Source of the DNA: Prolixibacteraceae bacterium
GTDB lineage: Bacteria; Bacteroidota; Bacteroidia; Bacteroidales; Prolixibacteraceae
Direction of reading: 5' to 3'
Length of the DNA: 64,000 nucleotides
Assembly: GCA_019856515.1 (NCBI GenBank)
Contig: CP082230.1
Coordinates: 2,790,001-2,854,000 of the forward strand
Each line of letters begins with the position of its first letter. The stretch's first letter is position 1. The position numbers and the translations under genes are program-made. The notes below the pieces were generated by a model. It worked only from the letters and a program-made list of their open reading frames with translations. It was not told the DNA's origin and did not search any database. Positions 2,914 through 64,000 of this stretch are shown one piece after another.

Positions 2914-3411
2914 ATGAATAAAATGAGAAAGATTGCTTACACCATGATGATGATTGCTATCGTATTAAGCATTTATAGCTGTTCTTCTACCACAAAAAAA
3001 GAAGAACCATCTCCTAGATTTAGAGTTGGTCTCACTACGATATTTACGGATGACATTGATGGTATGAAATCTCTATTCCATGATAAAATGGGAATTCCTA
3101 TCACAAGTGAACTAGCCGATTTTATTGAATTTAAGACTGGGCAAAGTAGGTTCTCTATTGGATCGAGAGAAGCCATGTTTAAAACACTCAAAGATAGCAC
3201 CTATATAATACAAAGAAGTGGAGCATCGGTAGGCATTGGATTCATGTTTGACACCAAAGAAGAGGTAGACTCTCTATTTCGATCAATGAAAGCACAAGGG
3301 GTTTTCTTTAACCAAGCTCCCAAAATGATGCCTTGGAATGAATACACGGCCTTTTTTAAAGATCCAGAAGGAAATATACATGAGTTAATCTATACACCTC
3401 CTCAGGATTAA
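2914..3411 (+). CDS. VOC-superfamily (glyoxalase-fold) lipoprotein
   Basis: A 165-residue protein with a lipoprotein signal peptide: basic start MNKMRK, hydrophobic core, and lipobox LSIYSC (Cys at about residue 23). The mature part has the beta-alpha-beta-beta-beta pattern of the vicinal oxygen chelate fold. This includes an early DDIDGMKSLFHDKMGIP segment, and the closing metal-site strand FFKDPEGNIHELIY, whose E of HELIY is the usual metal ligand. VOC proteins bind divalent metals in glyoxalases, dioxygenases and resistance proteins; here the substrate is unknown. A lipid-anchored VOC domain is unusual and suggests a periplasmic or outer-membrane location. ATG 2914 and ATG 2923 are both possible starts. 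It stands alone, with no partner gene in the same direction. Confidence 0.75.
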   Translation: MNKMRKIAYTMMMIAIVLSIYSCSSTTKKEEPSPRFRVGLTTIFTDDIDGMKSLFHDKMGIPITSELADFIEFKTGQSRFSIGSREAMFKTLKDSTYIIQRSGASVGIGFMFDTKEEVDSLFRSMKAQGVFFNQAPKMMPWNEYTAFFKDPEGNIHELIYTPPQD

Positions 3412-3524: not shown

Positions 3525-3850
3525 AACAGAGTTAATTTTACACCGTCTACAAGGTCTCTTACACCACCACCGTCTCCCCCTAGAATTAGATATTCAACCT
3601 AGCCAAACAGGGGAATACCCTATACTTTCTCCCAACTTAATCCGTCCACAATCCGTCGTTAATATATCCTTAATCCGTCCTTTGTCCATGGTTCAGCCAT
3701 GGTTCCTCCATGGTTTGTCCATCGATTTCGGGGTTTTGGATGGATGAACCATGGATCAATGATGGCTGAATCATGGACAAAGGACGGATTAAGGACGGAT
3801 TAAGGATATATTAACGACGGATTAAGTTGGGAGAAGGTATAGGGTGTTCC
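3525..3850. repeat. Long palindromic repeat element, copy 1
   Basis: An imperfect inverted repeat folds nearly the whole stretch 3612-3850 into one hairpin centred near 3731. For example 3681-3700 pairs with 3762-3781 with one mismatch, and the outer arms around 3616-3645 pair with 3815-3845. Each arm carries short tandem units containing ATTAAGGACGG or its complement, and several CCATGG sites. Sequence to its left (3525-3546 and 3591-3615) is also shared with copy 2 at 35.2-35.6 kb, which lies in the opposite orientation. An open frame on the + strand inside it is a by-product of the palindrome. Confidence 0.85.
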
Positions 3851-4334: not shown

Positions 4335-4355
4335 ATGATTTGGAAAGAATATATC

Positions 4356-5396
4356 ATGACCATAAACAATAGATCATATAAAAACGGTTTTCTTGGTTTC
4401 CCTTCAACATTAACAGACGAGTATAACTCACGTCAAGCTCAAGGGTTTGATATTGGGCGAGTTATCGAAGAGCATAAACAACGATATATAGTAGAGACTG
4501 AAACAGGAGTTGTTGAAGCAGAGGTGATTGGCAACCTACTTTATACAGCGCTATCGAGAGAGGATTTTCCTGCCGTAGGTGACTGGGTTGTTTTGATGCC
4601 TTACGATGAGGATAAAGCGATTATTCATGAGGTACTACCTCGATTCAATACCCTTTCGAGAAGAGATCATTTGGTTGCAACAAATATTGATGGGGCTTGT
4701 ATTGTGACTACCCCCAATAGGGACTTTAGTATGGCACGATTGGAGCGATATGTATCGCTATGCCATCAATCAAATATCACTCCATTTATTGTGGTGAATA
4801 AGATTGATCTAGTATCTAGTGAAGATATTAACACCATACGTGAAGATATTGGTTCTTTGGCCACTAGCTTGTTTATAAGTTGTGTGGATAACATTTCAAC
4901 AGAGGAACTAAAAGCCTGTTTTCAACCAACAAAAACCTATATCATGTTAGGTTCATCTGGGGTTGGAAAGACATCAATCATTAATCATATTTTAGGGACA
5001 CCACTGTTGGCGACCCAAGAGATCAGTGAGAAGGTACAACGTGGAAAGCATCAAACAACCTCTCGTCATCTATTAGAGTTACCCAATGGTAGTTATTTGA
5101 TAGATAACCCAGGTGTAAGAGAGGTGGGAATAGCTGATCACAAAGAGGGAATCGAGCAGACCTTTGATCAGATAGAAGCTTTATCGTCACAATGCTATTA
5201 TGGCGACTGTAGCCATCAACATGAAAGAGGATGTGCTGTGACACAAGCAGTTTCTGACGGGACTCTATCCGAAGGTAGCTATCAACACTACTTAAAGTTA
5301 ATTAAAGAGGCGTCGCACTATGAGGCAACATCTTTAGAGCGAAAGCAAAAAGGGAAGCAGTTGAGTAAGCTGATTCGAAAGGTGAAGAACCGATAG
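4356..5396 (+). CDS. rsgA: Ribosome small subunit-dependent GTPase A
   Basis: A circularly permuted GTPase that helps late 30S subunit maturation. Numbering from ATG 4335, the protein has an N-terminal OB-fold-like part containing DFPAVGDWV. The motifs then appear in the permuted order G4 (NKID, 155-158), G1 (GSSGVGKT, 206-213) and G3 (DNPG, 257-260). The C-terminal zinc site is complete (Cys287, Cys292, His294, Cys300). I prefer ATG 4356 because GGAAAG lies 8 bases ahead of it; ATG 4335 would add seven residues. It is a single gene closed by a strong terminator. A second, quite different RsgA is encoded at 28.9-30.0 kb, so this genome carries at least two. Confidence 0.93.
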   Translation: MTINNRSYKNGFLGFPSTLTDEYNSRQAQGFDIGRVIEEHKQRYIVETETGVVEAEVIGNLLYTALSREDFPAVGDWVVLMPYDEDKAIIHEVLPRFNTLSRRDHLVATNIDGACIVTTPNRDFSMARLERYVSLCHQSNITPFIVVNKIDLVSSEDINTIREDIGSLATSLFISCVDNISTEELKACFQPTKTYIMLGSSGVGKTSIINHILGTPLLATQEISEKVQRGKHQTTSRHLLELPNGSYLIDNPGVREVGIADHKEGIEQTFDQIEALSSQCYYGDCSHQHERGCAVTQAVSDGTLSEGSYQHYLKLIKEASHYEATSLERKQKGKQLSKLIRKVKNR

Positions 5397-33847: not shown

Positions 33848-34870
33848 ATGATGGGAGAAAGAAGACAGGCCCGAAGTGAAAAAAGGACCGTCGGTAAAGG
33901 GGGCTCTAGCGCAGGTCAAAGAGTAGGTAAAAGCCGACCAAAATCATCCGATGCACCAAAAGGTCGTAAAGGGGATGACCGTAGTGCACGTAAAGCACAA
34001 AGAGCACCTCGCCATTACAAACAAGAAGAGCAAGAGTCTGACCAATACATGTCTAACGACGGTAAAGTATTTAAGCAGAAGCCTAAATTCTCGGATATGG
34101 GCAAAGCTCCTCAAAAAAGAATCAAGAAGAATACCAATGTAAGCAAGCGCAATGACGACACAATGCGTCTGAATCGTTTCATTGCCAATGCAGGAATCTG
34201 TTCTCGTCGTGATGCGGATACATATATTGCTTCAGGAGTGGTTACTGTCAATGGAAGCCCCGTTACTGAAATGGGATTCCGTGTAAAGCCAGGAGATGAA
34301 GTAAACTTCTCAGGAGAGAAAATTACCGCAGAACAAAAGCGTTATATCCTACTGAACAAACCAAAAGGTTTTGTTACAACAGTAGACGATCCACACGCCG
34401 ACAAAACTGTGATGGAGCTTGTATCATCAGCTTGTAAAGAGAGATTATATCCTGTAGGACGTCTTGACAAAGAGACAACAGGACTTCTTCTATTTACAAA
34501 CGATGGTGACCTAACAACTCGTCTTACACACCCAAAATATAATCGTAAGAAGATCTATCATGTTTACTGTGATAAGAAAGTAACCAAAAATCATATCCGT
34601 CAGATCTTAGAAGGTGTTAACCTTGAAGATGGATTTGTAAAAGCAGATGCAGTAAGTTACGTAGATCAAGACGACACAAAACAAGTAGGTATAGAAATCC
34701 ACTCTGGTAAAAACCGTATTGTACGTCGTATCTTTGGTGCGCTAGGGTACAAGGTGATGAAACTAGATAGAGTATATTTCTGTGGTTTGACAAAACTAAA
34801 CTTACCTCGTGGTAAATGGAGACATCTAACACCAGATGAAATCTCATTCCTTCGAATGGGAAACTTTTAA
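33848..34870 (+). CDS. 23S rRNA pseudouridine synthase, RluB/RsuA type
   Basis: A 340-residue protein. The first 110 residues are a basic, low-complexity extension (many K, R, S, G, Q). Then comes an S4 RNA-binding domain (MRLNRFIANAGICSRRDAD) and the catalytic domain with LLNKPKGFVTTVDD, and the active-site loop PVGRLDKETTGLLLFTNDG with the catalytic Asp. The end SGKNRIVRRIFGALGY and LNLPRGKWRHLT is as in RluB. It isomerises a uridine in large-subunit rRNA, probably position 2605. The long basic tail is common in Bacteroidota members and may help RNA contact. The second ATG (33851) is equally likely as start. Confidence 0.9.
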   Translation: MMGERRQARSEKRTVGKGGSSAGQRVGKSRPKSSDAPKGRKGDDRSARKAQRAPRHYKQEEQESDQYMSNDGKVFKQKPKFSDMGKAPQKRIKKNTNVSKRNDDTMRLNRFIANAGICSRRDADTYIASGVVTVNGSPVTEMGFRVKPGDEVNFSGEKITAEQKRYILLNKPKGFVTTVDDPHADKTVMELVSSACKERLYPVGRLDKETTGLLLFTNDGDLTTRLTHPKYNRKKIYHVYCDKKVTKNHIRQILEGVNLEDGFVKADAVSYVDQDDTKQVGIEIHSGKNRIVRRIFGALGYKVMKLDRVYFCGLTKLNLPRGKWRHLTPDEISFLRMGNF

Positions 34871-35230: not shown

Positions 35231-35605
35231 GTATGACTTAACAGCTACCATCCTCTGACTTAACCCATCCTTAATCCGCCCCTAATACGCCCTTAATCCG
35301 TCCTTTGTCCATGGTTTAGCCATGCTTCCTCCATGGTTTGTCCATCGATTTCGGGGTTTTTGATGGCTGAACCATGGAGGAAGCATGGACGAATCATGGA
35401 CAAAGGGCGTATTAGGTACGGATTAGGGGCGTATTAGGTACGGATTAGGTTGGGAGGAAGTATAGGGTATTCCCCTGTTTGGTAAGGTTGAATAAGTAAT
35501 TCGTGAGGCTGTGAAGTCAATTCTGTTAAGGGAGTTAAATGAGCTATTCTAATTTGCATGACAATGTAAAATTAACTCGAGACGGTGTAGAATTAACTCT
35601 GTCTA
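35231..35605. repeat. Long palindromic repeat element, copy 2 (inverted relative to copy 1)
   Basis: It shares with copy 1 (3525-3850) the core of CCATGG sites, the tandem ATTAGG/ACGG units and the nearly identical centre TCCATCGATTTCGGGGTTTT. The flank TTCCCCTGTTTGG (35471-35483) and GACGGTGTAGAATTAACTCTG (35581-35601) appear as reverse complements on the left side of copy 1, so the two copies lie in opposite orientation. The folded hairpin spans about 35252-35470. The stem is less regular than in copy 1. No protein gene is inside. Confidence 0.83.
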
Positions 35606-36279: not shown

Positions 36280-36942
36280 ATGGCAGATAGATTTGCAGAT
36301 CCCATAGGACGACTGATGGGATTGCGCTACAAGTCACATCCATGGCACGGTGTCTTCATTGGGAAAGATGTGCCGGAGATGGTTACTTGTTATATAGAAG
36401 TGGTAAGTACGGATACTGTCAAATATGAAGTAGACAAAGAGTCTGGATATTTGAAGATCGATAGACCACAAAAGTATTCCAATCACGTACCTGCACTATA
36501 CGGTTTCGTACCACAAACTTATTGTGGCGATTCGTTGGGCGAATTATGTTGCCGAAGAACTGGCCGAGAAGGTATCAAAGGAGATGGTGATCCATTGGAT
36601 ATTATTGTACTGACAGAGAAAGAGATTTCTCACGGTGATATCTTAGTGAGTGCCCATCCGATTGGTGGATTTCGAATGATTGATGGCAATGAGGCGGATG
36701 ATAAAATCATCGCGGTGTTGAAAGAGGATTTTATTTATGGACATATGACGGACATAAGCGAAGTTCCAGCCAATATCATTTCACGACTAAAGCACTACTT
36801 CTTGACTTACAAGGATATTCCTGGAGAAGAGCGCAACTCGGAAATTGCAGAGATCTATGGCAAAGAAGATGCCGTAGAAGTAATTGAAACATCCATAAAG
36901 GATTATTCAAACAAATTTGACAACCTAGGCAAACTGTTATAA
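36280..36942 (+). CDS. ppa: Inorganic pyrophosphatase (family I)
   Basis: A 220-residue cytoplasmic enzyme hydrolysing pyrophosphate to phosphate. Family I motifs are PALYGFVPQTYCGD (substrate and metal site) and GDGDPLDIIVL, the D-x-D-P-x-D motif binding Mg2+. Further on, DGNEADDKIIAVL and LKHYFLTYKDIPG also match. The length fits Bacteroidota enzymes with a short C-terminal addition. It is a single gene behind a long gene-free region. Confidence 0.94.
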   Translation: MADRFADPIGRLMGLRYKSHPWHGVFIGKDVPEMVTCYIEVVSTDTVKYEVDKESGYLKIDRPQKYSNHVPALYGFVPQTYCGDSLGELCCRRTGREGIKGDGDPLDIIVLTEKEISHGDILVSAHPIGGFRMIDGNEADDKIIAVLKEDFIYGHMTDISEVPANIISRLKHYFLTYKDIPGEERNSEIAEIYGKEDAVEVIETSIKDYSNKFDNLGKLL

Positions 36943-54239: not shown

Positions 54240-55298
54240 CTATCGTAATTTCAAATCTCTAGGTCTTTTCTTATTAAACCTTAAACCTGCTCTTTTAGTA
54301 AAACAGTCTAAGTATCTTGCTCCACAACCGAAAATATCACCGAACTCCATAATCAAGGAGATCTCATGTGCTCCAGCTGACGTGGCATTTAACTCTGAGA
54401 TGGGTATATCATAACTATATCCAATCTTGAATATTCCAAAAATCATTGCTGCAGATAGGATTACAGCTGATTGGTCCACCACCTTATCAATTCGATTATT
54501 AAATATTGGAACACCTCTCCACCAAGCCCCCACTTCAAAATTACGATTAAACCAGTAGCCTCCAAGATCTAATTGATTGAAATCATTTTGATATGTATAT
54601 CTATAAGATACACAAAAACTCCTTGGAAGGGTCTGTCTTTGCGTTGGTTGTCTCCAAATATTCATTCCACCAAAAACAGAGAAATACAAAGGAACTTCAT
54701 TTTTTTGACCTACAAATGAATAAGATGGAGTAGTTAAATGGAAAAGATTAAATCCTCCCCAAAACTTCCTATTATAGAAGAATGAACTGAACTTAAAATC
54801 AAGATATGAAGCTTGTCCACTTTCAAAATAACTTATACCAGTACCACCACCACTATTAATATCATTACCTGTAACAGCTTTAGTTCCATCGACACTCTTT
54901 TGTTCAAAACCAAACTCTAGACCTGGTATCCATGTCCATGTGTCAGATATCTGCAATCGATAGGTATACTGTAGTCCAAAATGGGTAGTAGAGAGAGAAG
55001 TGGTTCCTGCAATATCTCTCCATATAATAGCTCCAAAACCACTTTTCAGAGTATTCACATAAATATCCCCTGCTGCGGAAAATGTATTATATGAGTTTGG
55101 AATACCTGGCCATTGATTCCGGTAATTAGCTACGACTCTCATACCTCCCGTTGATCCTGCCAATGAAGGGGACATGAAAGTTGGAGCAGAAAAGAATTGT
55201 GAAAATTGTGGCTCTTGTGCTTTAACGGCAAGCATGCTTGCCGTTAAAGTTATACACAAGAACGCGCGTTTTAAATAGTTTTTCATATTCCGCGTCAT
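54240..55298 (-). CDS. PorP/SprF family type IX secretion membrane protein
   Basis: A 352-residue outer-membrane protein. Family signature at the mature N-terminus: PQFSQFFSAPTFMSPSLAG, then RVVANYRNQWPGIPNSY and the barrel strands, e.g. LQYTYRLQISDTWTWIPGLEFG. Its ATG at 55298 overlaps the stop codon of the giant upstream gene (TAATG), so it is translationally coupled. A second in-frame Met (55286) would give a shorter signal peptide. SprF, the best-known relative, is required for export of the giant adhesin SprB in gliding bacteria; here the same pairing is repeated. It differs from the PorP at 19775. Confidence 0.92.
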   Translation of the reverse strand: MTRNMKNYLKRAFLCITLTASMLAVKAQEPQFSQFFSAPTFMSPSLAGSTGGMRVVANYRNQWPGIPNSYNTFSAAGDIYVNTLKSGFGAIIWRDIAGTTSLSTTHFGLQYTYRLQISDTWTWIPGLEFGFEQKSVDGTKAVTGNDINSGGGTGISYFESGQASYLDFKFSSFFYNRKFWGGFNLFHLTTPSYSFVGQKNEVPLYFSVFGGMNIWRQPTQRQTLPRSFCVSYRYTYQNDFNQLDLGGYWFNRNFEVGAWWRGVPIFNNRIDKVVDQSAVILSAAMIFGIFKIGYSYDIPISELNATSAGAHEISLIMEFGDIFGCGARYLDCFTKRAGLRFNKKRPRDLKLR

Positions 55299-58200
55299 TA
55301 TCGTATTAGTGTTACATCTCCTGCCTGAATAACAGTATTACCATCATCAAAAGAGACATTTATTTGCCACATATAAACATCTAGTGGTGCGAGTTTACCA
55401 TTATAGTATCCATCCCATCCTGTGTTGATATCTCTAGAGTGGAAAACCATGTTCCCCCAACGGTTAAAGACCTTCAGGTCATAACTCGAAACTTTTGCTT
55501 CTCCTGATGGTACAATTGGTAAGAAAGTTCGATTATAAACATCAGATTCTCCAGGAGTAACTGTTCCTCCTGTTGGACCATTAGTACTTGGAGTAAAAAC
55601 ATTCGGCACTTTTACTCGACCATTGGATACTGCTGTAACTGCCGCTTTTTGTTCAAAAGATGCTTCACATCCATCTTCAGAGACAACCCTTAACGTTACG
55701 TCATGAACGCCTTGCGCTACATATTCATGGGAAGGATCGACTTCTGTCGACTTGGTTCCATCACCAAAATCCCAATAGTTTTCATAGTTATTCACAGATA
55801 AGTTAGAGAATATCGCTTTCTGACCAGGGATCTCTACTCTAGAAGGAAGAACTGTAAAATATGCCTTTGGTACAGGTAATACATGTATTGTCTTCTCCAT
55901 TACATCCGCTGTTCCTTCTTCATTGCGAACTGTCAGCCTAACATTATAGTATTTCTCTTCTGTAAAGGTGCGTGTAGGCTCTCGATCATGTGAAGCTCCT
56001 ACACCATCAAACTCCCAATAATATGTGCTCGCATTCTTAGAGCTATTCTTAAAAGTCACTGTTAAAGGACTACACCCCTCAACTACAGAAGGAGTAAAAT
56101 TAGCAACAGGAACTCCTGGTCTAATTGTTACTGTCTCTTCATAACTATTTGAACACTCCTCTCCTGTAGCTTCTAACTTAATCTTAAATGTTCCTACTCG
56201 ACCATAAGTATATGGATCTGGGTCTTTCTTATCAATAGTTACCCCATCATGCTCTCCAAAGGACCATTTATACTTCCAAGGACCTTCATTCGTGATATTA
56301 GAGACACTCACGGTTGCTTCTGGCCAAATCATAAAGACTGGTGTGATACCAAAATCAACTTTTGGTGTTGGATTTACTTTATAAGTCTTAGTCATGTCAT
56401 CCGTACAACCTTGATTTGAAGCTACAGTCTGTTTAATCGTATAGATTTTATCTGTTGCTTCTTCATTCAAGAACAAATGCTCTGGGTTATCTGCAATGGA
56501 AGTTGACCCATCACCAAAGTCCCAAGTTACATTGTAGTTATGATCCGCTGTCGATATAAAATTAACTTTGGCTGGACTACAGTGTCCATCCCCACTTAAT
56601 TCAAATCCAGCTTTAGCAGGTGCAAATATTACAATCTGTTCTTTTGCTGGTTTCTTTTCTTTACAATACCTATTCGAAGCAAAAAGAGAAACAGTCCGAG
56701 CATCCTTAAATTTTCCTTTTTTACTATCATGAACAAACGTTCTAGTAAACTCCAGATCTGGAATATTCTCAGTTGTCTTGCCATCATCAAATGACCATAA
56801 ATAATCGATACAATTTATAGATGTATTCTTAAAGCTCACCTCCAGAGGAGAACACCCTTCCATCTTATCTACAACGAATTTTCCTTCCATATGTGGTTGA
56901 ATTTCCAACTTCTTTGTCATTTGACTATCACAGAATCTTGTACTTACAGTCAATGTAATATCAAAACTCTTTGGGGCATCGGTATCATTTTCAAATGTTT
57001 TCAATGGAGCACCATCATATTGTATATCAGATCCATCGCCAAAATTCCATTGATATGTATCTCCACCAATTGATTTCGCCCTTGCATCGAATTGCACATC
57101 AACAGGAGAACATATCATACCTACATCCATATCAAAATCAGCCGAAACTTCAGGGTGTACAATCATATTTATTGGATCTGGCTCTTGTTTACATCCATAA
57201 GCATTCTCACCTACAAGCCTTACGGAAAAAGATCTATCAAAATTATCCTTATTGTTATAGATATGATCAAACTCTTTCTTGTATGTAGCAGCGGTTTCTG
57301 TGATAGTCATGCCGTCATCAATATACCAAGTAAATGTATCTACACCACTCGAGGCATTCGTAAAATGAGCAGTAAAAGGAGCACAACCAACACGTGGTGT
57401 CATGTCAAAAGAGACATTCGGTTGTGGGTTTACCGTAATCTTCTTTGGAACAGCTGTTGCTGTACATCCAAACGAAGACCTCGCAGTTAGAGTTACTGTA
57501 TACTCTATAGGGACATTCGTTGTATTGACATAGTGATACGATGGGGACGGTATCGTTGTTGTAGCTTTAGGGTCTGTTGGCACTCCAAAATCCCAACTCC
57601 AACTATCTGCTCCAACACTCTTATCTGTAACAGTTGCAGTCACAGGAGAACATCCCCCTGCACTCAAATCAAAATCAGCAGTAACAGATGGTCTCACCTC
57701 TACCATTTGATTTATTGTTTTTGAACAACCTCCACCTGGACTAACAGTTAAAGTGATATCATACTTATCAATTCTCTTGGAATCATTTGTAAAGATACGT
57801 TCAACTGTTTCACCTGGTTTCATCGCCGAAACATCCATCGGAGGAGTTCCATCTCTGAAATCGATAAACATAGTATTGGCACCAGAAGTAAGGTTTGTTA
57901 TCGTCACCTTCACTGGAGAACAAGTACCATCAGTTACAACCTTCATTTTTGGTTCCACATCGCGAATAACAGTAATGTCCTTCTCTATAAAATCAGTACA
58001 TCCAAAAAAGTTTTCAACATCCAAACGAACTGTTTGTGTAATATCCTTAGTCGTTTTATTCGAATATGTATGATAAGAATCTTTTGCTTTTGTTCCATCA
58101 CCATAATCCCACTTATACTCTGTAAATCCAACAGTCGTATTGTTTAGAATCATTATTTCATCCGAACAATAAGTCGTTTTATCTCCAGCAAATGAGAAGT

Positions 58201-61200
58201 CTGCATTAATAACAGGATACACACGAATCACATCACGAAGTGTTTTATCACAAAGCCCAGCAGCATTTGCTGCAACTTTCATACTTACATTGTATAATGT
58301 CTCGGAAACTTCCGTATTAGTAAATGTATGTGTAACCGAAGCACCACCTGCTAGAGTCGCTGTAGTACCATCTCCAAAATCAATGGTTGCATCTTCCCCT
58401 CCTGTTGTGGTATTTGTAATCTCAACCTCTAATGGAGAACATCCTTCTTTAATATTAAATGTCCATCCAGGAACCATTTCATGAATAATATTCACATTCT
58501 TAGTTACTGTAGAAGAACATCCAAAATCATTGTCTGCTGTCAATGTAATTGTATGAGTTGCATCTGCAGGACCATGGTTCGTATATGGATGATATCCCTT
58601 ATCATCTGGAGCAGTTCCATCACCATAATCCCAAGAGAATGTCTTGCCTCCAATGGTTTTATTTGCGAATACGACCTGCTCTCCTGAACAGAATGTATCT
58701 TTTCCGGCAGCAAAATCAAAGTCAGCTTTCGCCTTAGGATTAACATTAATCACCTGTGTAGATATATCCTCACACTTAGCTCCTTTTACCTTTAATGTCA
58801 CATTCATCGGTACCTGACCAAAACTAGCTGAAATAAAGGTATGAGTAAATGTGGGTTCAAATCTATTCTGTACCAACTCCTCAACTCCATTAACAATCCA
58901 TGTATAACTGTCTGCTCCTGGCGTAGACAGGTTATCAAACACCACTGTCTCTCCAGAACAAATAGTCGTTTTACCAGCAGTGAAAGTTGCCTTCATTTCA
59001 GGGTGAATTTCAATATTAGCTGTCTCTGATGCTTTACACCCTCCAGGGAATATTGCATCGACCTTCACCACATAATTCTGTGCAGTTGGCTCCATATGAC
59101 TAAACTCATGATCCACCATGGAAACATAATGGGTCACTTGTTCTGGGGTTTTATCTCCAAAATTCCATGTATAGTCAATGGCTCCAGGACTAGCTACAAA
59201 TGCGACCTCCTCAGGAGAACATGCTCCACCAGCTGGAATATTACTTGATAAACTAAATGTAGGTTTAGGTGCTACCGCAATAATCTGCTCTTGATCATTT
59301 GTACACACATAATCCTTGGTTCCAGCTAAATTAGGTGTCGTCTTTGTTCCTGTTAACTTAATCTTAAAGTTGAACTTAGTGAAATCAGTATTTGTAAATG
59401 AATGCACAGGATTTTCATCATTGGCATCCTCAACACCATCTTCATTAAAATCCCACGAGTAGCTATCAGAAAACTGTGATTTATTTGTAAGTGTTGCTTC
59501 AACAGGACTACAGTTTCCATCCTGTGTATAACTAAAGTCAATCAGTGGCATTGGATGAACATTCACTGCTATCGGAGCAGCTGTACTTTCACAATAACCA
59601 TTTGATACCACAAGAACAATATTACGATCTTTAGCTCTATTACCCATATGGCGAATTACAAAATCCGTTGCTGGGTTCTCGTCATATGATAAAACTCGCA
59701 CATCAGTTGGATCTGCAGGATCCACCTCTTTCCATTGATAACGATATTTTTTTAGCTCATCCCCTGTAGATGTATTCGTTACTCCAACATCAAGAGGAGA
59801 ACAACCTTCAAGATCCGTATTGATAGTAAAATCAGCATTAGGCTGCGACAAGAAAGTATAAGTTACTTCTACCACTTGAGGAGTACACACTCCATTTTCA
59901 ACTGTAACTTTAAATGTATAATTTCCATACTCATTTACATCAACAGAAGTTATCCTATTATCAGCTGGAGTAAAGTTTGCTGTCGCAGTACCACTTGGCC
60001 CACTCTTCAACTCCCATAATACACTTTGATAATCACCTGTAATAACCGCTTCTAGATCTGCATCCTTATCACATTCTGGATGTGCAGGCGGATCCACATT
60101 TACCACTGGAGTCTCTCTCATATGAACTGTTATTTCATCTACAGCTTCACATGTATGGGCAACTCCTCCTCCTGCATCTATAGCTTGATGCTCAATGACC
60201 CATTCAAAGATATATTTACCCTTATTGGTTACAATAAAGTCAGTCTTAACATCATGTAAATTAGGCATCGCGATAACAGCTCCATCTGAGCCAGCACCTC
60301 CATCTTTCAATCTCCATGTTCCAACTTCTTTATCTGTACGCGTTGCCACCATTAATGCATCTGCAGTTAAACTTCCTCTAAGTCCACAAAATTCAGTAGT
60401 AGTATTATGGATATTAGGAGTTGGCATCTCTACAATTACCACGTCCACAGCACCTGCACCTTGGCACACAGTTCCTTCTTTATCATCCAACGTTACAGAC
60501 AAAGGATATACGCCTGTAGCCTTTCCTGTTGGATCAAATGTATATGCTGCATTGACAGCTCCAACAACAACAGCTCCTTTTTCTGTCCAGATAAAGTTTT
60601 TATAATCAATCTCACTACCACCAGCATATATAGGTGTAATATCAAAAGCAGGACTTCCTTCACAAACATAGACCGTAGGGTTAGCAAAAGTAACCGTAAT
60701 TGGTGCCTTCACCTCAACAGTTATAATCTTTGTACTTGGACATGTTGTCTTATCCACATTGTATACAGTCCAACTTATTTCGTAAGTGCCTGGTTGATCA
60801 AATTCAGCAGTTGCTAAAGGATCCACCTTTCCAGATGGTGCTCCTGGGGTGTTTACTGTAAATACAACATTGCCTGGACCTGAAGCTTTACTCCACTCCC
60901 CTTTTATCGATGCAAACCCAACTCCAGTACCATTTACTTTAGTCCCTGCACCATCATCAACTTTACCGATGTTAGTTCCTTCTAAATCAACTGTTGTTTC
61001 ACAAGTAAAGTAATGATCTGCGGCCATAGTCTTAACCGAGGCACTAGGCTGAACAATTGCTTCAGCTACGGGAGCTTCTTTTACTTCAATCGTAAAATCT
61101 CTTGTGGTTACACAAGTTCCACTTATTGGGTCATTCACTTCTAAAATGACCTCGTAATTATTAGGTGGAATATCTGTGGTTCTCAGTGTTAGATTTCGAA

Positions 61201-64000
61201 GATTTGTAGCTGCAATACCTGTGGCTGGATTGACTAAATGATTGGTAATATCGAAACCACCTGCAGCTTTCATTCTCCACGTGTAATTATACTTATCATA
61301 ATCACCTGTAGCTTCCTCTGAACCGCCACTAATCACAGGTCTGATTGGCAAATCATTACCAATACATACTTGAGCATTAGCACCTAAACCGTCGAAGAAC
61401 TCAGCAATTTCAATCGGCTGCACAAAATATGCTTGCATATCATCAGTCTCAACACAATTGAAACCTTTATAAGATGAAGTAATAGTCCACGTTAAAGTGA
61501 AATTACCACTCGTGCCTGGTAAACGAAGCGCTTTAGCTCTTGGATCATTGACATTGGTAAATGCAACAGCACCAGCTGGAGTAACACTCCATTCTCCTGT
61601 TCTTGTCAAACCTGGTACACCTACAATCGGATTTGCATCTAACTGGATCTCATTCAAACAAGTTTCTTGATCACCATTAGCATCAGCATTCTGCTGTGGG
61701 ATCACTGCCACAACAAAAGTTGCAGTTGCACCACCGACTCCTTTGGCATCTAAAGCAGTCAAGGTAATATGATATAAACCTTCGTTATCTAATCTTAACG
61801 ATGCATTTTTATCCGTAATATTACCATCAACAATTTCAGTAGCCGTAACATCGACACCTGGTGGAGTATCATTGAAATCTCGTTTCTCTGCAGCCCAGTT
61901 ATAAGATGCAAAAGCACCAGAACCCCCAGCCAGATCAATCAAATCTTGTAATTGGAATAATCCACCAGCTTGTTGACAAACTTCTTGATCACCTTTTGGC
62001 CTAGCTGTGGATCCTTTTACAAACTCAACTTCTATATCTTTATGGGTCTCACATAATCGATCACCATCAGGTGTTACATTCAACATGCTCCATCTGAAGA
62101 CATATGTTCCAGGATTTGTAATCGAAGCTGTTGAATTAGCTGAGTTAGATGTCCATGCCACAATACCTGCCACAATATCTGGTCCAGATACCATATTCCA
62201 TCTTCCTTCCAATAAATCACCAACTAGATCTGGATCGGTTGCTAAAGCAGATATATTAGCTCCATTTAATTTTATTTTATTGTCTGAAGTTATCACCTGT
62301 AAGTTAACACTTGCCCCAGAAGTTCCTTTCTTATATTGAACTGTTGCTCCTGCTGTTCCAGATGCCTTTGCATCAGGTACAGTGATACTCGCAATTGGTT
62401 TTTCAAGTACATGAATATCGAACGTCTCCGTCACCACTTGAATACTTCCATGATTATCAGTGGCGGTCAACGTCGCAGTATAAACACCTTCAACCACAGC
62501 ATTAGTCATATTAATTTGTGGTGCTTTTACATTACTTGCATTTAATATCGTAGCTGTAACATCCGTTTTACCAGCATCGACGACATTCCAACGATAAGTA
62601 ATTCCATCTGCACTTCCACCTTTAATACTGACCACTCCATTTAATGGTGCATTATTATCACCTCGACAGAAATAGAAATCATCAATCGGATCGATTTCAA
62701 TAGGCTCAATAAAGTTAAGTAATACAGGTAAATCAACTTGACATATTCCATTATTCAATCTCCAATTAGCTCTTACTTGTCCAAAAACAGTAGAGGTATA
62801 ATCATACAATGGCTTAACGGTTTCATTAACCCATTTGGTTCCATCAAAACGTTGCCAAGTACCATTTACTAATCCCGCAGGAGCCATTCCATCATCACTA
62901 CCCTCTAATTGAATATGCTTCCCAATAATAAAATACTCAGGAGCAGCTACATTAAACACTTGTGCTTTTTGAACATCTGCAATCGTTCCATAAACTTCAG
63001 GAGTCGTCCCCATCACCCTTATCTGTGGCAACATAGCTTTGGTGACATGAATCGTACGTATTGCATTATCACTACTTACAGAATTGAATGGATCATTTAT
63101 AGTAAGCGTTACTTTATATGTCCCCTCTGTAGCATGCAATGCATCAAATCGAAGATTCTTGTCGGCTGCATTATCATCCAATAATAAATGAGAGAAATCT
63201 GTTGGATCTCCATCTTTTGTTACAGTATAAGTATAATTAGTAATTGGAGCAGAACCACCGGTCACAGTAAATTCATTTCCAATCTCTAATTCACCATTAG
63301 ATGGACAAAATGTTGACTCTCCGACTGTGTTCACCTCAATTGGTGCAACGAAAGTTACTTCAACTGTAATTTGTGATGCTCTTAAAGTAGCTGGAGTCAA
63401 TCCACTATTAATCGTATAAGTAAACTCATACGTTCCATAGTCTGTAACTTTAACTGTTGGATTATGAATATCCCATCTATCAACATATCCTGTTGGTTTA
63501 TTCACTGTCCACTCTCCAGAAATATGGTCCAAAGGAGCCGCATCAGGTTGTATTCCTCCAACGAGTTCATTAAAACCATTTATCTGCACCTGTTTTCCAA
63601 CAACAATATATTTCGGATTAATAAGAGTATGTCCTGTATATTCTTGGACAGGGTCTCCTACTGTCGTTGTTGCAGTTAGAATATTTGCTCCTGCTACAGG
63701 AACTTCCAATACATGTACATGAACGACTTTTGAAACATCAGTACAAATACCTGCCTTATCTGAGATAGTTATGGTAAGATCAAAATCCCCTTTTACAGTT
63801 GTATCAAACGTCGGCTTCTCAATATTAGTTGCTCCTAACTTGCCACTCGCATCTGTCCATAAGATATCATATTCTGCCGTCAATGCGCCACCTGTAAGAA
63901 CCGTTCCATCTCTTTCAACATTCGGGTTCATTGTCGGTGCATCACCAACATTAAAATAGATATCATCTGCAGCAAATGCTACCGTTACTGGTGCATGATA
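55298..64000 (-). CDS. Giant PKD-repeat adhesin with CHU_C C-terminal sorting domain, 5' end beyond window
   Basis: Open to the right edge, so the N-terminus is missing; about 2,900 residues are present. The first 1,350 visible residues are repeating beta domains (Ig- or PKD-like) separated by segments such as IEVxEAPVA and TFCPSNG. From about residue 1,400 there are about 16 PKD modules of 80-90 residues, with W-x-F/Y-G-D-G-T cores (WDYGDGT, WNFGDGS, WDFGDGT). Most open with a G-C-S-P motif and carry a second Cys near the end, suggesting a disulfide. The last 90 residues (VPNVFTPSTNGPTGG, YDLKVFNRWGNMVFHS, TGWDGYYNGK) are the type B sorting domain. It is probably a SprB-like surface adhesin exported by the type IX system. 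Confidence 0.93.
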   Translation of the reverse strand, partial: YHAPVTVAFAADDIYFNVGDAPTMNPNVERDGTVLTGGALTAEYDILWTDASGKLGATNIEKPTFDTTVKGDFDLTITISDKAGICTDVSKVVHVHVLEVPVAGANILTATTTVGDPVQEYTGHTLINPKYIVVGKQVQINGFNELVGGIQPDAAPLDHISGEWTVNKPTGYVDRWDIHNPTVKVTDYGTYEFTYTINSGLTPATLRASQITVEVTFVAPIEVNTVGESTFCPSNGELEIGNEFTVTGGSAPITNYTYTVTKDGDPTDFSHLLLDDNAADKNLRFDALHATEGTYKVTLTINDPFNSVSSDNAIRTIHVTKAMLPQIRVMGTTPEVYGTIADVQKAQVFNVAAPEYFIIGKHIQLEGSDDGMAPAGLVNGTWQRFDGTKWVNETVKPLYDYTSTVFGQVRANWRLNNGICQVDLPVLLNFIEPIEIDPIDDFYFCRGDNNAPLNGVVSIKGGSADGITYRWNVVDAGKTDVTATILNASNVKAPQINMTNAVVEGVYTATLTATDNHGSIQVVTETFDIHVLEKPIASITVPDAKASGTAGATVQYKKGTSGASVNLQVITSDNKIKLNGANISALATDPDLVGDLLEGRWNMVSGPDIVAGIVAWTSNSANSTASITNPGTYVFRWSMLNVTPDGDRLCETHKDIEVEFVKGSTARPKGDQEVCQQAGGLFQLQDLIDLAGGSGAFASYNWAAEKRDFNDTPPGVDVTATEIVDGNITDKNASLRLDNEGLYHITLTALDAKGVGGATATFVVAVIPQQNADANGDQETCLNEIQLDANPIVGVPGLTRTGEWSVTPAGAVAFTNVNDPRAKALRLPGTSGNFTLTWTITSSYKGFNCVETDDMQAYFVQPIEIAEFFDGLGANAQVCIGNDLPIRPVISGGSEEATGDYDKYNYTWRMKAAGGFDITNHLVNPATGIAATNLRNLTLRTTDIPPNNYEVILEVNDPISGTCVTTRDFTIEVKEAPVAEAIVQPSASVKTMAADHYFTCETTVDLEGTNIGKVDDGAGTKVNGTGVGFASIKGEWSKASGPGNVVFTVNTPGAPSGKVDPLATAEFDQPGTYEISWTVYNVDKTTCPSTKIITVEVKAPITVTFANPTVYVCEGSPAFDITPIYAGGSEIDYKNFIWTEKGAVVVGAVNAAYTFDPTGKATGVYPLSVTLDDKEGTVCQGAGAVDVVIVEMPTPNIHNTTTEFCGLRGSLTADALMVATRTDKEVGTWRLKDGGAGSDGAVIAMPNLHDVKTDFIVTNKGKYIFEWVIEHQAIDAGGGVAHTCEAVDEITVHMRETPVVNVDPPAHPECDKDADLEAVITGDYQSVLWELKSGPSGTATANFTPADNRITSVDVNEYGNYTFKVTVENGVCTPQVVEVTYTFLSQPNADFTINTDLEGCSPLDVGVTNTSTGDELKKYRYQWKEVDPADPTDVRVLSYDENPATDFVIRHMGNRAKDRNIVLVVSNGYCESTAAPIAVNVHPMPLIDFSYTQDGNCSPVEATLTNKSQFSDSYSWDFNEDGVEDANDENPVHSFTNTDFTKFNFKIKLTGTKTTPNLAGTKDYVCTNDQEQIIAVAPKPTFSLSSNIPAGGACSPEEVAFVASPGAIDYTWNFGDKTPEQVTHYVSMVDHEFSHMEPTAQNYVVKVDAIFPGGCKASETANIEIHPEMKATFTAGKTTICSGETVVFDNLSTPGADSYTWIVNGVEELVQNRFEPTFTHTFISASFGQVPMNVTLKVKGAKCEDISTQVINVNPKAKADFDFAAGKDTFCSGEQVVFANKTIGGKTFSWDYGDGTAPDDKGYHPYTNHGPADATHTITLTADNDFGCSSTVTKNVNIIHEMVPGWTFNIKEGCSPLEVEITNTTTGGEDATIDFGDGTTATLAGGASVTHTFTNTEVSETLYNVSMKVAANAAGLCDKTLRDVIRVYPVINADFSFAGDKTTYCSDEIMILNNTTVGFTEYKWDYGDGTKAKDSYHTYSNKTTKDITQTVRLDVENFFGCTDFIEKDITVIRDVEPKMKVVTDGTCSPVKVTITNLTSGANTMFIDFRDGTPPMDVSAMKPGETVERIFTNDSKRIDKYDITLTVSPGGGCSKTINQMVEVRPSVTADFDLSAGGCSPVTATVTDKSVGADSWSWDFGVPTDPKATTTIPSPSYHYVNTTNVPIEYTVTLTARSSFGCTATAVPKKITVNPQPNVSFDMTPRVGCAPFTAHFTNASSGVDTFTWYIDDGMTITETAATYKKEFDHIYNNKDNFDRSFSVRLVGENAYGCKQEPDPINMIVHPEVSADFDMDVGMICSPVDVQFDARAKSIGGDTYQWNFGDGSDIQYDGAPLKTFENDTDAPKSFDITLTVSTRFCDSQMTKKLEIQPHMEGKFVVDKMEGCSPLEVSFKNTSINCIDYLWSFDDGKTTENIPDLEFTRTFVHDSKKGKFKDARTVSLFASNRYCKEKKPAKEQIVIFAPAKAGFELSGDGHCSPAKVNFISTADHNYNVTWDFGDGSTSIADNPEHLFLNEEATDKIYTIKQTVASNQGCTDDMTKTYKVNPTPKVDFGITPVFMIWPEATVSVSNITNEGPWKYKWSFGEHDGVTIDKKDPDPYTYGRVGTFKIKLEATGEECSNSYEETVTIRPGVPVANFTPSVVEGCSPLTVTFKNSSKNASTYYWEFDGVGASHDREPTRTFTEEKYYNVRLTVRNEEGTADVMEKTIHVLPVPKAYFTVLPSRVEIPGQKAIFSNLSVNNYENYWDFGDGTKSTEVDPSHEYVAQGVHDVTLRVVSEDGCEASFEQKAAVTAVSNGRVKVPNVFTPSTNGPTGGTVTPGESDVYNRTFLPIVPSGEAKVSSYDLKVFNRWGNMVFHSRDINTGWDGYYNGKLAPLDVYMWQINVSFDDGNTVIQAGDVTLIR

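What the first reader, a model, noticed from the sequence alone, without database searches (positions are those of the whole stretch)
3525..3850. Long palindromic element shared, in opposite orientation, with 35.2-35.6 kb
A hairpin of about 240 bases built from short tandem units (ATTAAGGACGG, CCATGG-containing blocks), with additional flanking sequence shared with a second copy 31.7 kb away. The core centre is nearly identical between copies while the arms vary, and arm changes are partly compensated (for example AATCCGTCC versus AATACGCCC pairing with matching partners). Compensating changes suggest selection on the folded form or frequent gene conversion between arms. It encodes no protein, so it could be a non-autonomous mobile element, a REP-like structure or a source of structured RNA.
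Basis: partly seen in the sequence, partly recalled or inferred. Interest (0 to 1): 0.7.

Follow-up and report, generated by a model that had tools for sequence, protein, structure and literature searches.

The report
Evenly spaced chromosomal hairpin repeat family
The long palindrome is one of about 40 to 60 related non-coding DNA hairpins that a group of Bacteroidota bacteria carries in the gaps between genes, never close to one another, which suggests that something controls where they sit.

Summary
The palindrome is real: arms 3612-3723/3739-3850, second copy 35258-35346/35362-35450. Both cores have the same orientation; the inverted flank is an IS256-type insertion-sequence end. They belong to a genus-wide family: 38 copies here, 39 in G002, about 62 in G003; 4 of 4 genus genomes match, 0 of 57 other relatives. 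Each is an 11-nt modular hairpin; 35 copies align over 107 columns without a gap, 52 invariant.

The unexpected result is spacing. Copies avoid each other in three genomes (smallest gaps 27.6, 24.5, 15.9 kb; P 1e-4, 8e-5, <5e-5). No decayed copies were found, within capped searches. Positions turn over between species, with empty sites; sequence looks homogenised within species. IS256-like ends cluster beside hairpins. REPIN/RAYT membership fails: no Y1 transposase found in G003. Best reading: a maintained, spaced chromosomal site; close rival: a selfish element with insertion exclusion.

The parts
3612..3850 (+). Hairpin copy 1 (long subfamily): arms 3612-3723 and 3739-3850
   Evidence: the repeat finder; fold; genome place 2793612-2793850
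3675..3781 (+). 107-nt conserved core of copy 1 (TTnnnCCATGG units)
   Evidence: gapless alignment A1 of 35 copies; letters
3724..3738 (+). Apical spacer of copy 1, GATTTCGGGGTTTTG; its first ten bases are invariant or nearly so in the 35 aligned copies
3525..3547 (-). IS256-type terminal motif (1 mismatch to GACGGTGTAAAATTAACTCTGTC), outer end facing the hairpin
   Evidence: orientation
35258..35473 (+). Hairpin copy 2: arms 35258-35346 and 35362-35450; match to copy 1 runs to 35473
35298..35404 (+). 107-nt conserved core of copy 2
   Evidence: letters
35581..35603 (+). IS256-type terminal motif (1 mismatch), outer end facing the hairpin; a partial second motif at 35560-35578
2914..3411 (+). 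Left neighbour of copy 1: glyoxalase-superfamily protein (PF00903)
4335..5396 (+). Right neighbour of copy 1: RsgA-type GTPase (PF03193)
33848..34870 (+). Left neighbour of copy 2: S4/pseudouridine synthase (PF00849); this gap also carries a hairpin in G003
36280..36942 (+). Right neighbour of copy 2: inorganic pyrophosphatase (PF00719); this gap also carries a hairpin in G003

Best explanation
The two palindromes belong to a genus-specific family of about 40-60 non-coding hairpin sites spread over the whole chromosome. Shown: modular 11-nt hairpin with a strongly conserved core, location between genes, mutual avoidance (no gaps under 16 to 27 kb) in three species, turnover of position between species. 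Seen by reading, not by a formal test: sequence alike within a species even at gaps shared between species. Inferred: the folded or arrayed core is read by a trans-acting host protein, and the site is kept because the chromosome needs one at intervals (a chromosome-organising or domain-marking site). New copies arise elsewhere, redundant near neighbours are lost, and conversion between copies or co-evolution with the protein keeps each species' set alike.
For: Spacing: G002 39 copies, CV 0.43 (0 of 50,000 simulations as even), smallest gap 24.5 kb, P 8e-5; this genome, 38 copies, smallest gap 27.6 kb of mean 136 kb, P 1e-4; G003, 61 copies on 25 contigs, 0 gaps under 15 kb against 10.3 expected, smallest gap reached in 0 of 20,000 shuffles. 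Neighbour orientation makes no clear difference, so deletion between direct repeats is not an obvious cause. Intactness: all 80 BLAST matches at E <= 0.001 lie in the 38 loci (40 of 44 candidates scored); of 79 model matches in this genome 57 are listed, 38 on the core strand and 19 on the other, all in those loci. Core of 35 copies without an indel. The hairpin lies about 640-890 bp upstream of the first 16S in 5 of 5 tandem rRNA arrays here and 3 of 4 in G002, always on the opposite strand, but at 0 of 6 single operons (Fisher P 0.0014). Partial positional memory: 17 flank genes in 10 of 35 loci shared with G002 hairpin loci against 5 genes in 4 loci for midpoint controls.
Against: Most positions are not conserved: of 3 hairpins of this genome and 4 of G003 in the best collinear stretch, one gap is shared. 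In this genome the gap CV alone is not significant (0.80, P 0.10) and density is uneven. No replication-strand polarity (15:23 here with the origin guessed from GC skew; 11/8 and 12/8 in G002) and no gene-orientation rule. No binding protein identified. Near-identical cores exist outside rRNA arrays (10 of 595 pairs at 97% or more), as recent copying would give. rRNA-array copies are duplicates of each other, so that association is few events. Insertion exclusion would give the same spacing.
Confidence: 0.4

Rival explanations
1. A selfish non-autonomous mobile hairpin that copies itself with an enzyme supplied in trans; an insertion-exclusion process like target immunity keeps copies apart. 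No host function.
For: Presence/absence with short empty gaps: the gap of the 2875221 copy is 859 bp here and 227 bp in G003; that of the G003 210784 copy is 700 bp there and 258 bp here. Genus-only distribution. Ten of 595 core pairs at least 97% alike, as recent copying would give. Avoidance over tens of kb resembles transposon target immunity (recalled).
Against: No flanking terminal repeats or readable target duplications. No transposase found that all carriers share: Y1_Tnp not found in G003; other transposase families were not surveyed. No relics found within capped searches, unlike the partial IS ends beside the hairpins.
Confidence: 0.37
2. A structured RNA or transcription signal: the strand carrying TTTCGGGG is transcribed and folds.
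For: G.U exceeds A.C in arms on that strand: 237:93 here over 35 copies, 263:105 in G002, 119:96 in G003. That strand folds better in 32 of 35, 30 of 39 and 49 of 57 copies.
Against: Copies share ancestry, so few independent changes; outer arms of the long subfamily show 43:37, no bias. No covariation. No Rfam match at the hairpins of the window or of 20 fetched loci. No orientation rule relative to neighbour genes.
Confidence: 0.12
3. A break-and-conversion hotspot: the long palindrome is cut as a cruciform or lagging-strand hairpin, and repair from other copies homogenises the family. No spacing function.
For: Long palindromes are nuclease targets (SbcCD, recalled). Species-specific sequence even at shared gaps, by reading. 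Unit order differs between arms and copies.
Against: Does not explain mutual avoidance. Arms of the window copies carry 17-21% mismatches, which should weaken cutting.
Confidence: 0.08
4. Ends of one larger duplicated segment, or chance.
For: Two copies 31.7 kb apart in the window. A few other pairs share flank: 1263877 and 1960681 over 928 bp at 82%, and three pairs over 376-510 bp at 70-74%; five copies share rRNA arrays.
Against: 38 copies, 0 matches of the reversed control pattern; beyond those pairs, IS ends and other short repeats the flanks do not match.
Confidence: 0.01

Closest known systems
REP / REPIN elements with RAYT (Y1) transposases
   Same: Dispersed, between genes, hairpin-forming, non-coding, many copies per genome
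   Different: REPINs are REP doublets tied to RAYTs and randomly distributed in extragenic space (PMC3116915, abstract read). Here single 100-240-bp hairpins of 11-nt units, avoiding each other, with no Y1 gene found in one carrier genome.
BrickBuilt MITE of Porphyromonas gingivalis (PMC4596501; abstract, section 7 part 1 of 2 and section 9 read)
   Same: Bacteroidota; between genes; tandem short units; unit gain and loss; shared and unshared loci between strains and species; one copy between IS elements; 19 copies
   Different: 23-nt direct repeats between leader and tail with IS5-type inverted ends and some target duplications; not described as a central palindrome in the parts read. Spacing is not treated in the parts read.
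MatS, Noc or SlmA site sets; DNA uptake sequences (recalled; only a search listing seen)
   Same: Many sites spread over a chromosome, some evenly
   Different: Those are short sites of about 10-30 bp; here the site is a 100-240-bp hairpin and no protein is known.
parC of plasmid R1 (11-bp direct repeats bound by ParR; recalled)
   Same: 11-bp repeats in two arrays
   Different: Plasmid partition locus with its own genes; here chromosomal, about 40 copies.

Membership tests
REPIN / REP-RAYT | Y1 transposase in each carrier genome | tested here: not met
   PF01797: 2 in this genome, 1 in G002, 0 in G003 (99% complete, about 62 hairpins), 0 in G001 (77% complete)
REPIN / REP-RAYT | Transposase gene beside or flanked by the elements | tested here: not met
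   Y1 genes of this genome at 4668281 and 4678198; nearest copies end at 4629963 and start at 4761519. The G002 gene lies 4.8 kb from one copy
REPIN / REP-RAYT | Random spread in extragenic space | tested here: not met
   Over-dispersed in three genomes
MITE | Terminal inverted repeats matching an autonomous transposon | tested here: not met
   IS256-type ends lie outside the hairpin, outer end facing it for 20 of 25 ends, so they are neighbours, not ends of the element; 18 of 38 copies have none within 700 bp
MITE | Target-site duplication against an empty site | tested here: inconclusive
   Empty gaps found, flanks too diverged at the junction
MITE | Non-coding and dispersed | tested here: met
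   two copies overlap only mechanical frames of 97 and 113 codons
BrickBuilt | 23-nt direct repeats with leader and tail | tested here: not met
   11-nt units in inverted arms
Chromosome-organising site set | Even or patterned genome-wide spacing | tested here: met
   Mutual avoidance in three genomes; evenness by CV significant in G002 only (P 0.10 in this genome, not computed for G003)
Chromosome-organising site set | Dedicated binding protein | not testable with these tools
   needs pull-down or ChIP
Structured RNA family | Covarying pairs | tested here: not met
   2 of 25 pairs with a double change, covariation -0.36

The most novel reading that the evidence does not exclude
A Bacteroidota genus marks its whole chromosome with one large, protein-read hairpin roughly every 60-136 kb; positions drift over evolution but spacing and intactness are selected, so these are structural punctuation marks of the nucleoid of a kind not described before.
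Probability: 0.32. Interest if true: 0.86.

Novelty: new variant of a known kind. Interest (0 to 1): 0.62.

Why it matters
Dispersed palindromes in bacteria are usually filed as selfish leftovers scattered at random. A family whose copies keep a constant core, avoid one another over tens of kilobases in three species, and look alike within each species shows either an unusual long-range insertion exclusion or selection for regularly placed chromosomal sites. Both are directly testable: delete copies, move copies, pull down the protein.

Tried and rejected
Larger duplicated segment: rejected. RAYT mobilisation: rejected as the general mechanism, though the one G002 gene lies 4.8 kb from a copy. 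IS256-MITE: the IS ends mostly face the hairpin from outside and 18 of 38 copies lack them. Compensating arm changes: rejected. In G002 and G003 arms of one copy were even less alike than arms of different copies (33 of 39 and 55 of 57 copies tested); part of this follows from how I oriented copies, and apical segments seem flipped against flanks in 6 of 57 G003 copies, 6 more unclassified, so I draw nothing from it. Terminator or promoter by gene context: rejected as a rule (left|right neighbours -|+ 13, +|+ 9, +|- 9, -|- 6, one undetermined). Replication polarity: none. Deletion between near direct copies as cause of avoidance: same-strand neighbours are among the closest pairs. Carriage on phage, plasmid or viral records: no match (exact pattern). 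Four hits in other taxa (L104, L113, L114, L139) are single motifs without a hairpin array; the Marinifilaceae and Vallitalea MAG contigs (L102, L105, L140) look like misbinned pieces of the same genus (inference). Literature: searches listed no description of this family; only PMC4596501 and PMC3116915 were opened, and subscription papers are not covered.

Post hoc choices: even spacing was first seen by eye in the G002 list, so G000 and G003 are the independent checks; the 24 and 15 kb limits were set after seeing the smallest gaps, the smallest-gap tests need no such limit. One search used 33 of the 39 G002 copies and is replaced. One G003 copy (C30) was left out because its contig length was not known, and contigs without copies are not in the test. 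G001 was not tested for spacing. Three of five rRNA-array copies were dropped from pair counts, from A1 and. Searches oriented some G002/G003 copies wrongly; redo this.

Full report
What is in the window. Two long imperfect palindromes, 3612-3850 and 35258-35450, fold far better than shuffles as single strands (z -16.7 and -13.6). Arms are rows of 11-nt units: inner TTnnnCCATGG units, outer TTAATCCGTCC-type units, around an apical GATTTCGGGGTTTT. Both cores run on the + strand.

A family, not a pair. The window lies at 2790001-2854000 of a 5.19 Mb single-contig genome. BLAST, a core pattern (35 sites, 0 in the reversed control) and a looser core scan of the fetched stretches (one chance match set aside) give 38 copies; the listed places of a unit pattern (about 100 of 155) all lie in the same loci. 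Among 61 genomes searched, 4 of 4 of the genus and 0 of 57 others match. The genus name Halosquirtibacter is my guess only. G002 has 39 copies and G003 about 62. No match was found in viral contigs by exact pattern, nor in plasmid or phage records.

Anatomy. 35 non-duplicate copies of this genome align over 107 columns without a gap; 52 columns are invariant. Core pairs are 86% alike at the median, and 10 of 595 pairs reach 97% or more. A long subfamily has TTAATCCGTCC arms, a short one CTCCTACC arms. G002 and G003 have their own versions with different loops and unit choices. A covariance model finds 79 matches here, 78 in G002, 127 in G003, 61 in G001, about two per locus because the element is palindromic; 57 of the 79 of this genome are listed and all fall in the 38 loci. 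That search scored 150 of 1836 first-look candidates, so decayed copies may have been missed. At the depth none was seen, in contrast to the partial IS ends nearby.

Placement. Copies lie between genes, in no fixed relation to gene direction; two overlap only mechanical frames of 97 and 113 codons. They avoid each other: smallest gap 27.6 kb of 38 here (P 1e-4), 24.5 kb of 39 in G002 (P 8e-5; CV 0.43, 0 of 50,000 simulations), 15.9 kb of 61 in G003 (0 of 20,000 within-contig shuffles). The CV in this genome alone is not significant (0.80, P 0.10). Jittering copies by up to 150 kb, which keeps regional density, gives zero gaps under 24 kb in 0.04% of runs here and 0.14% in G002. Neighbour orientation makes no clear difference, nor does replication strand.

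Turnover and homogenisation. Compared with a 220 kb contig of G003 (120 reciprocal best hits over the compared regions), one gap in the collinear part carries a hairpin in both species, that of copy 2 of the window. The 2875221 copy and the 2924113 copy (here beside about 5 kb of extra genes) are missing in G003, and the G003 copies at 139313, 156133 and 210784 are missing here. Aligned gaps show the empty sites of 2875221, 156133 and 210784; no target duplication could be read. Copy 1 of the window lies where G003 keeps few orthologues. The 4904310 gap carries a hairpin in three species. At the shared gaps that I read, the sequence is of the species' own type; this was not tested formally. 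Genes flanking our copies are found near G002 copies more often than at midpoints between them (17 genes in 10 loci against 5 genes in 4 loci, of 35 loci counted, after dropping genes with near-equal second hits). In two species the hairpin precedes tandem rRNA arrays (8 of 9) but no single operon (0 of 6), about 640-890 bp upstream of the first 16S and always on the strand opposite to the rRNA; the five arrays here are copies of each other.

Insertion sequences. An intact IS256-type element (PF00872 transposase, 403 aa) lies with its end 38 bp from the hairpin match at 4372037. Of 38 mapped ends of this type (12 of 22 and 6 of 16), 18 lie within 300 bp of a hairpin core, against about 0.4% expected per end. 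One place is called by both patterns and two pairs abut, so these are not 38 independent ends. Within 700 bp, 20 of 25 ends turn their outer side to the hairpin, in 20 of 38 copies (up to 5 errors allowed, so the weakest may be chance). So these elements tend to land beside hairpins; they do not contain them.

Is the fold selected? Arms of one copy are not more alike than arms of different copies, and covariation is negligible. On the TTTCGGGG strand G.U exceeds A.C (237:93, 263:105, 119:96) and the fold is better than on the other strand. Outer arms of the long subfamily show no bias (43:37). With shared ancestry this is a hint only.

Mechanism. I favour a maintained chromosomal site read by a host protein, with spacing under selection (0.40), narrowly over a selfish hairpin with insertion exclusion (0.37). 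What separates them, a binding protein and strain-level movement, cannot be reached with these tools.

Noticed in passing
L075 31-661 (G000 about 4369.1-4369.7 kb): Direct repeats mostly at 66-bp steps, CRISPR-like array, about 0.9 kb from an intact IS256 transposase gene.
   Followed up: partly
G000 2961082-2973081, 3339327-3346088, 3521816-3528577, 3819770-3826531, 4064518-4071273: 13 16S genes, 11 of them in five head-to-tail rRNA arrays at about 5.2 kb steps; G002 has 12 with four arrays.
   Followed up: partly
L189, L159, L187, L169, L186, L188: A second repeat of about 130 bp, in several copies at some loci, unrelated to the hairpin.
   Followed up: no
window 55298-64000 minus (G000 2845298-2859599): A giant reading frame of 4766 codons, 58% identical in G003.
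   Followed up: no
L252 4140-4302: Group II intron match (RF02001) about 0.7 kb from a G002 hairpin upstream of rRNA.
   Followed up: no
G000 2.65-4.84 Mb: 17 of 18 long-subfamily hairpins lie in this part (subfamily set by eye), which includes the origin side judged roughly from GC skew; the short subfamily is spread more widely.
   Followed up: partly
L102, L105, L140: Contigs filed under Marinifilaceae and Vallitalea MAGs carry G003-type hairpins; probably misbinned.
   Followed up: partly
G002 2532862-2533119 (L373): A weak Y1 transposase match (30.8 bits) 4.8 kb from a hairpin copy; the only one in G002.
   Followed up: no
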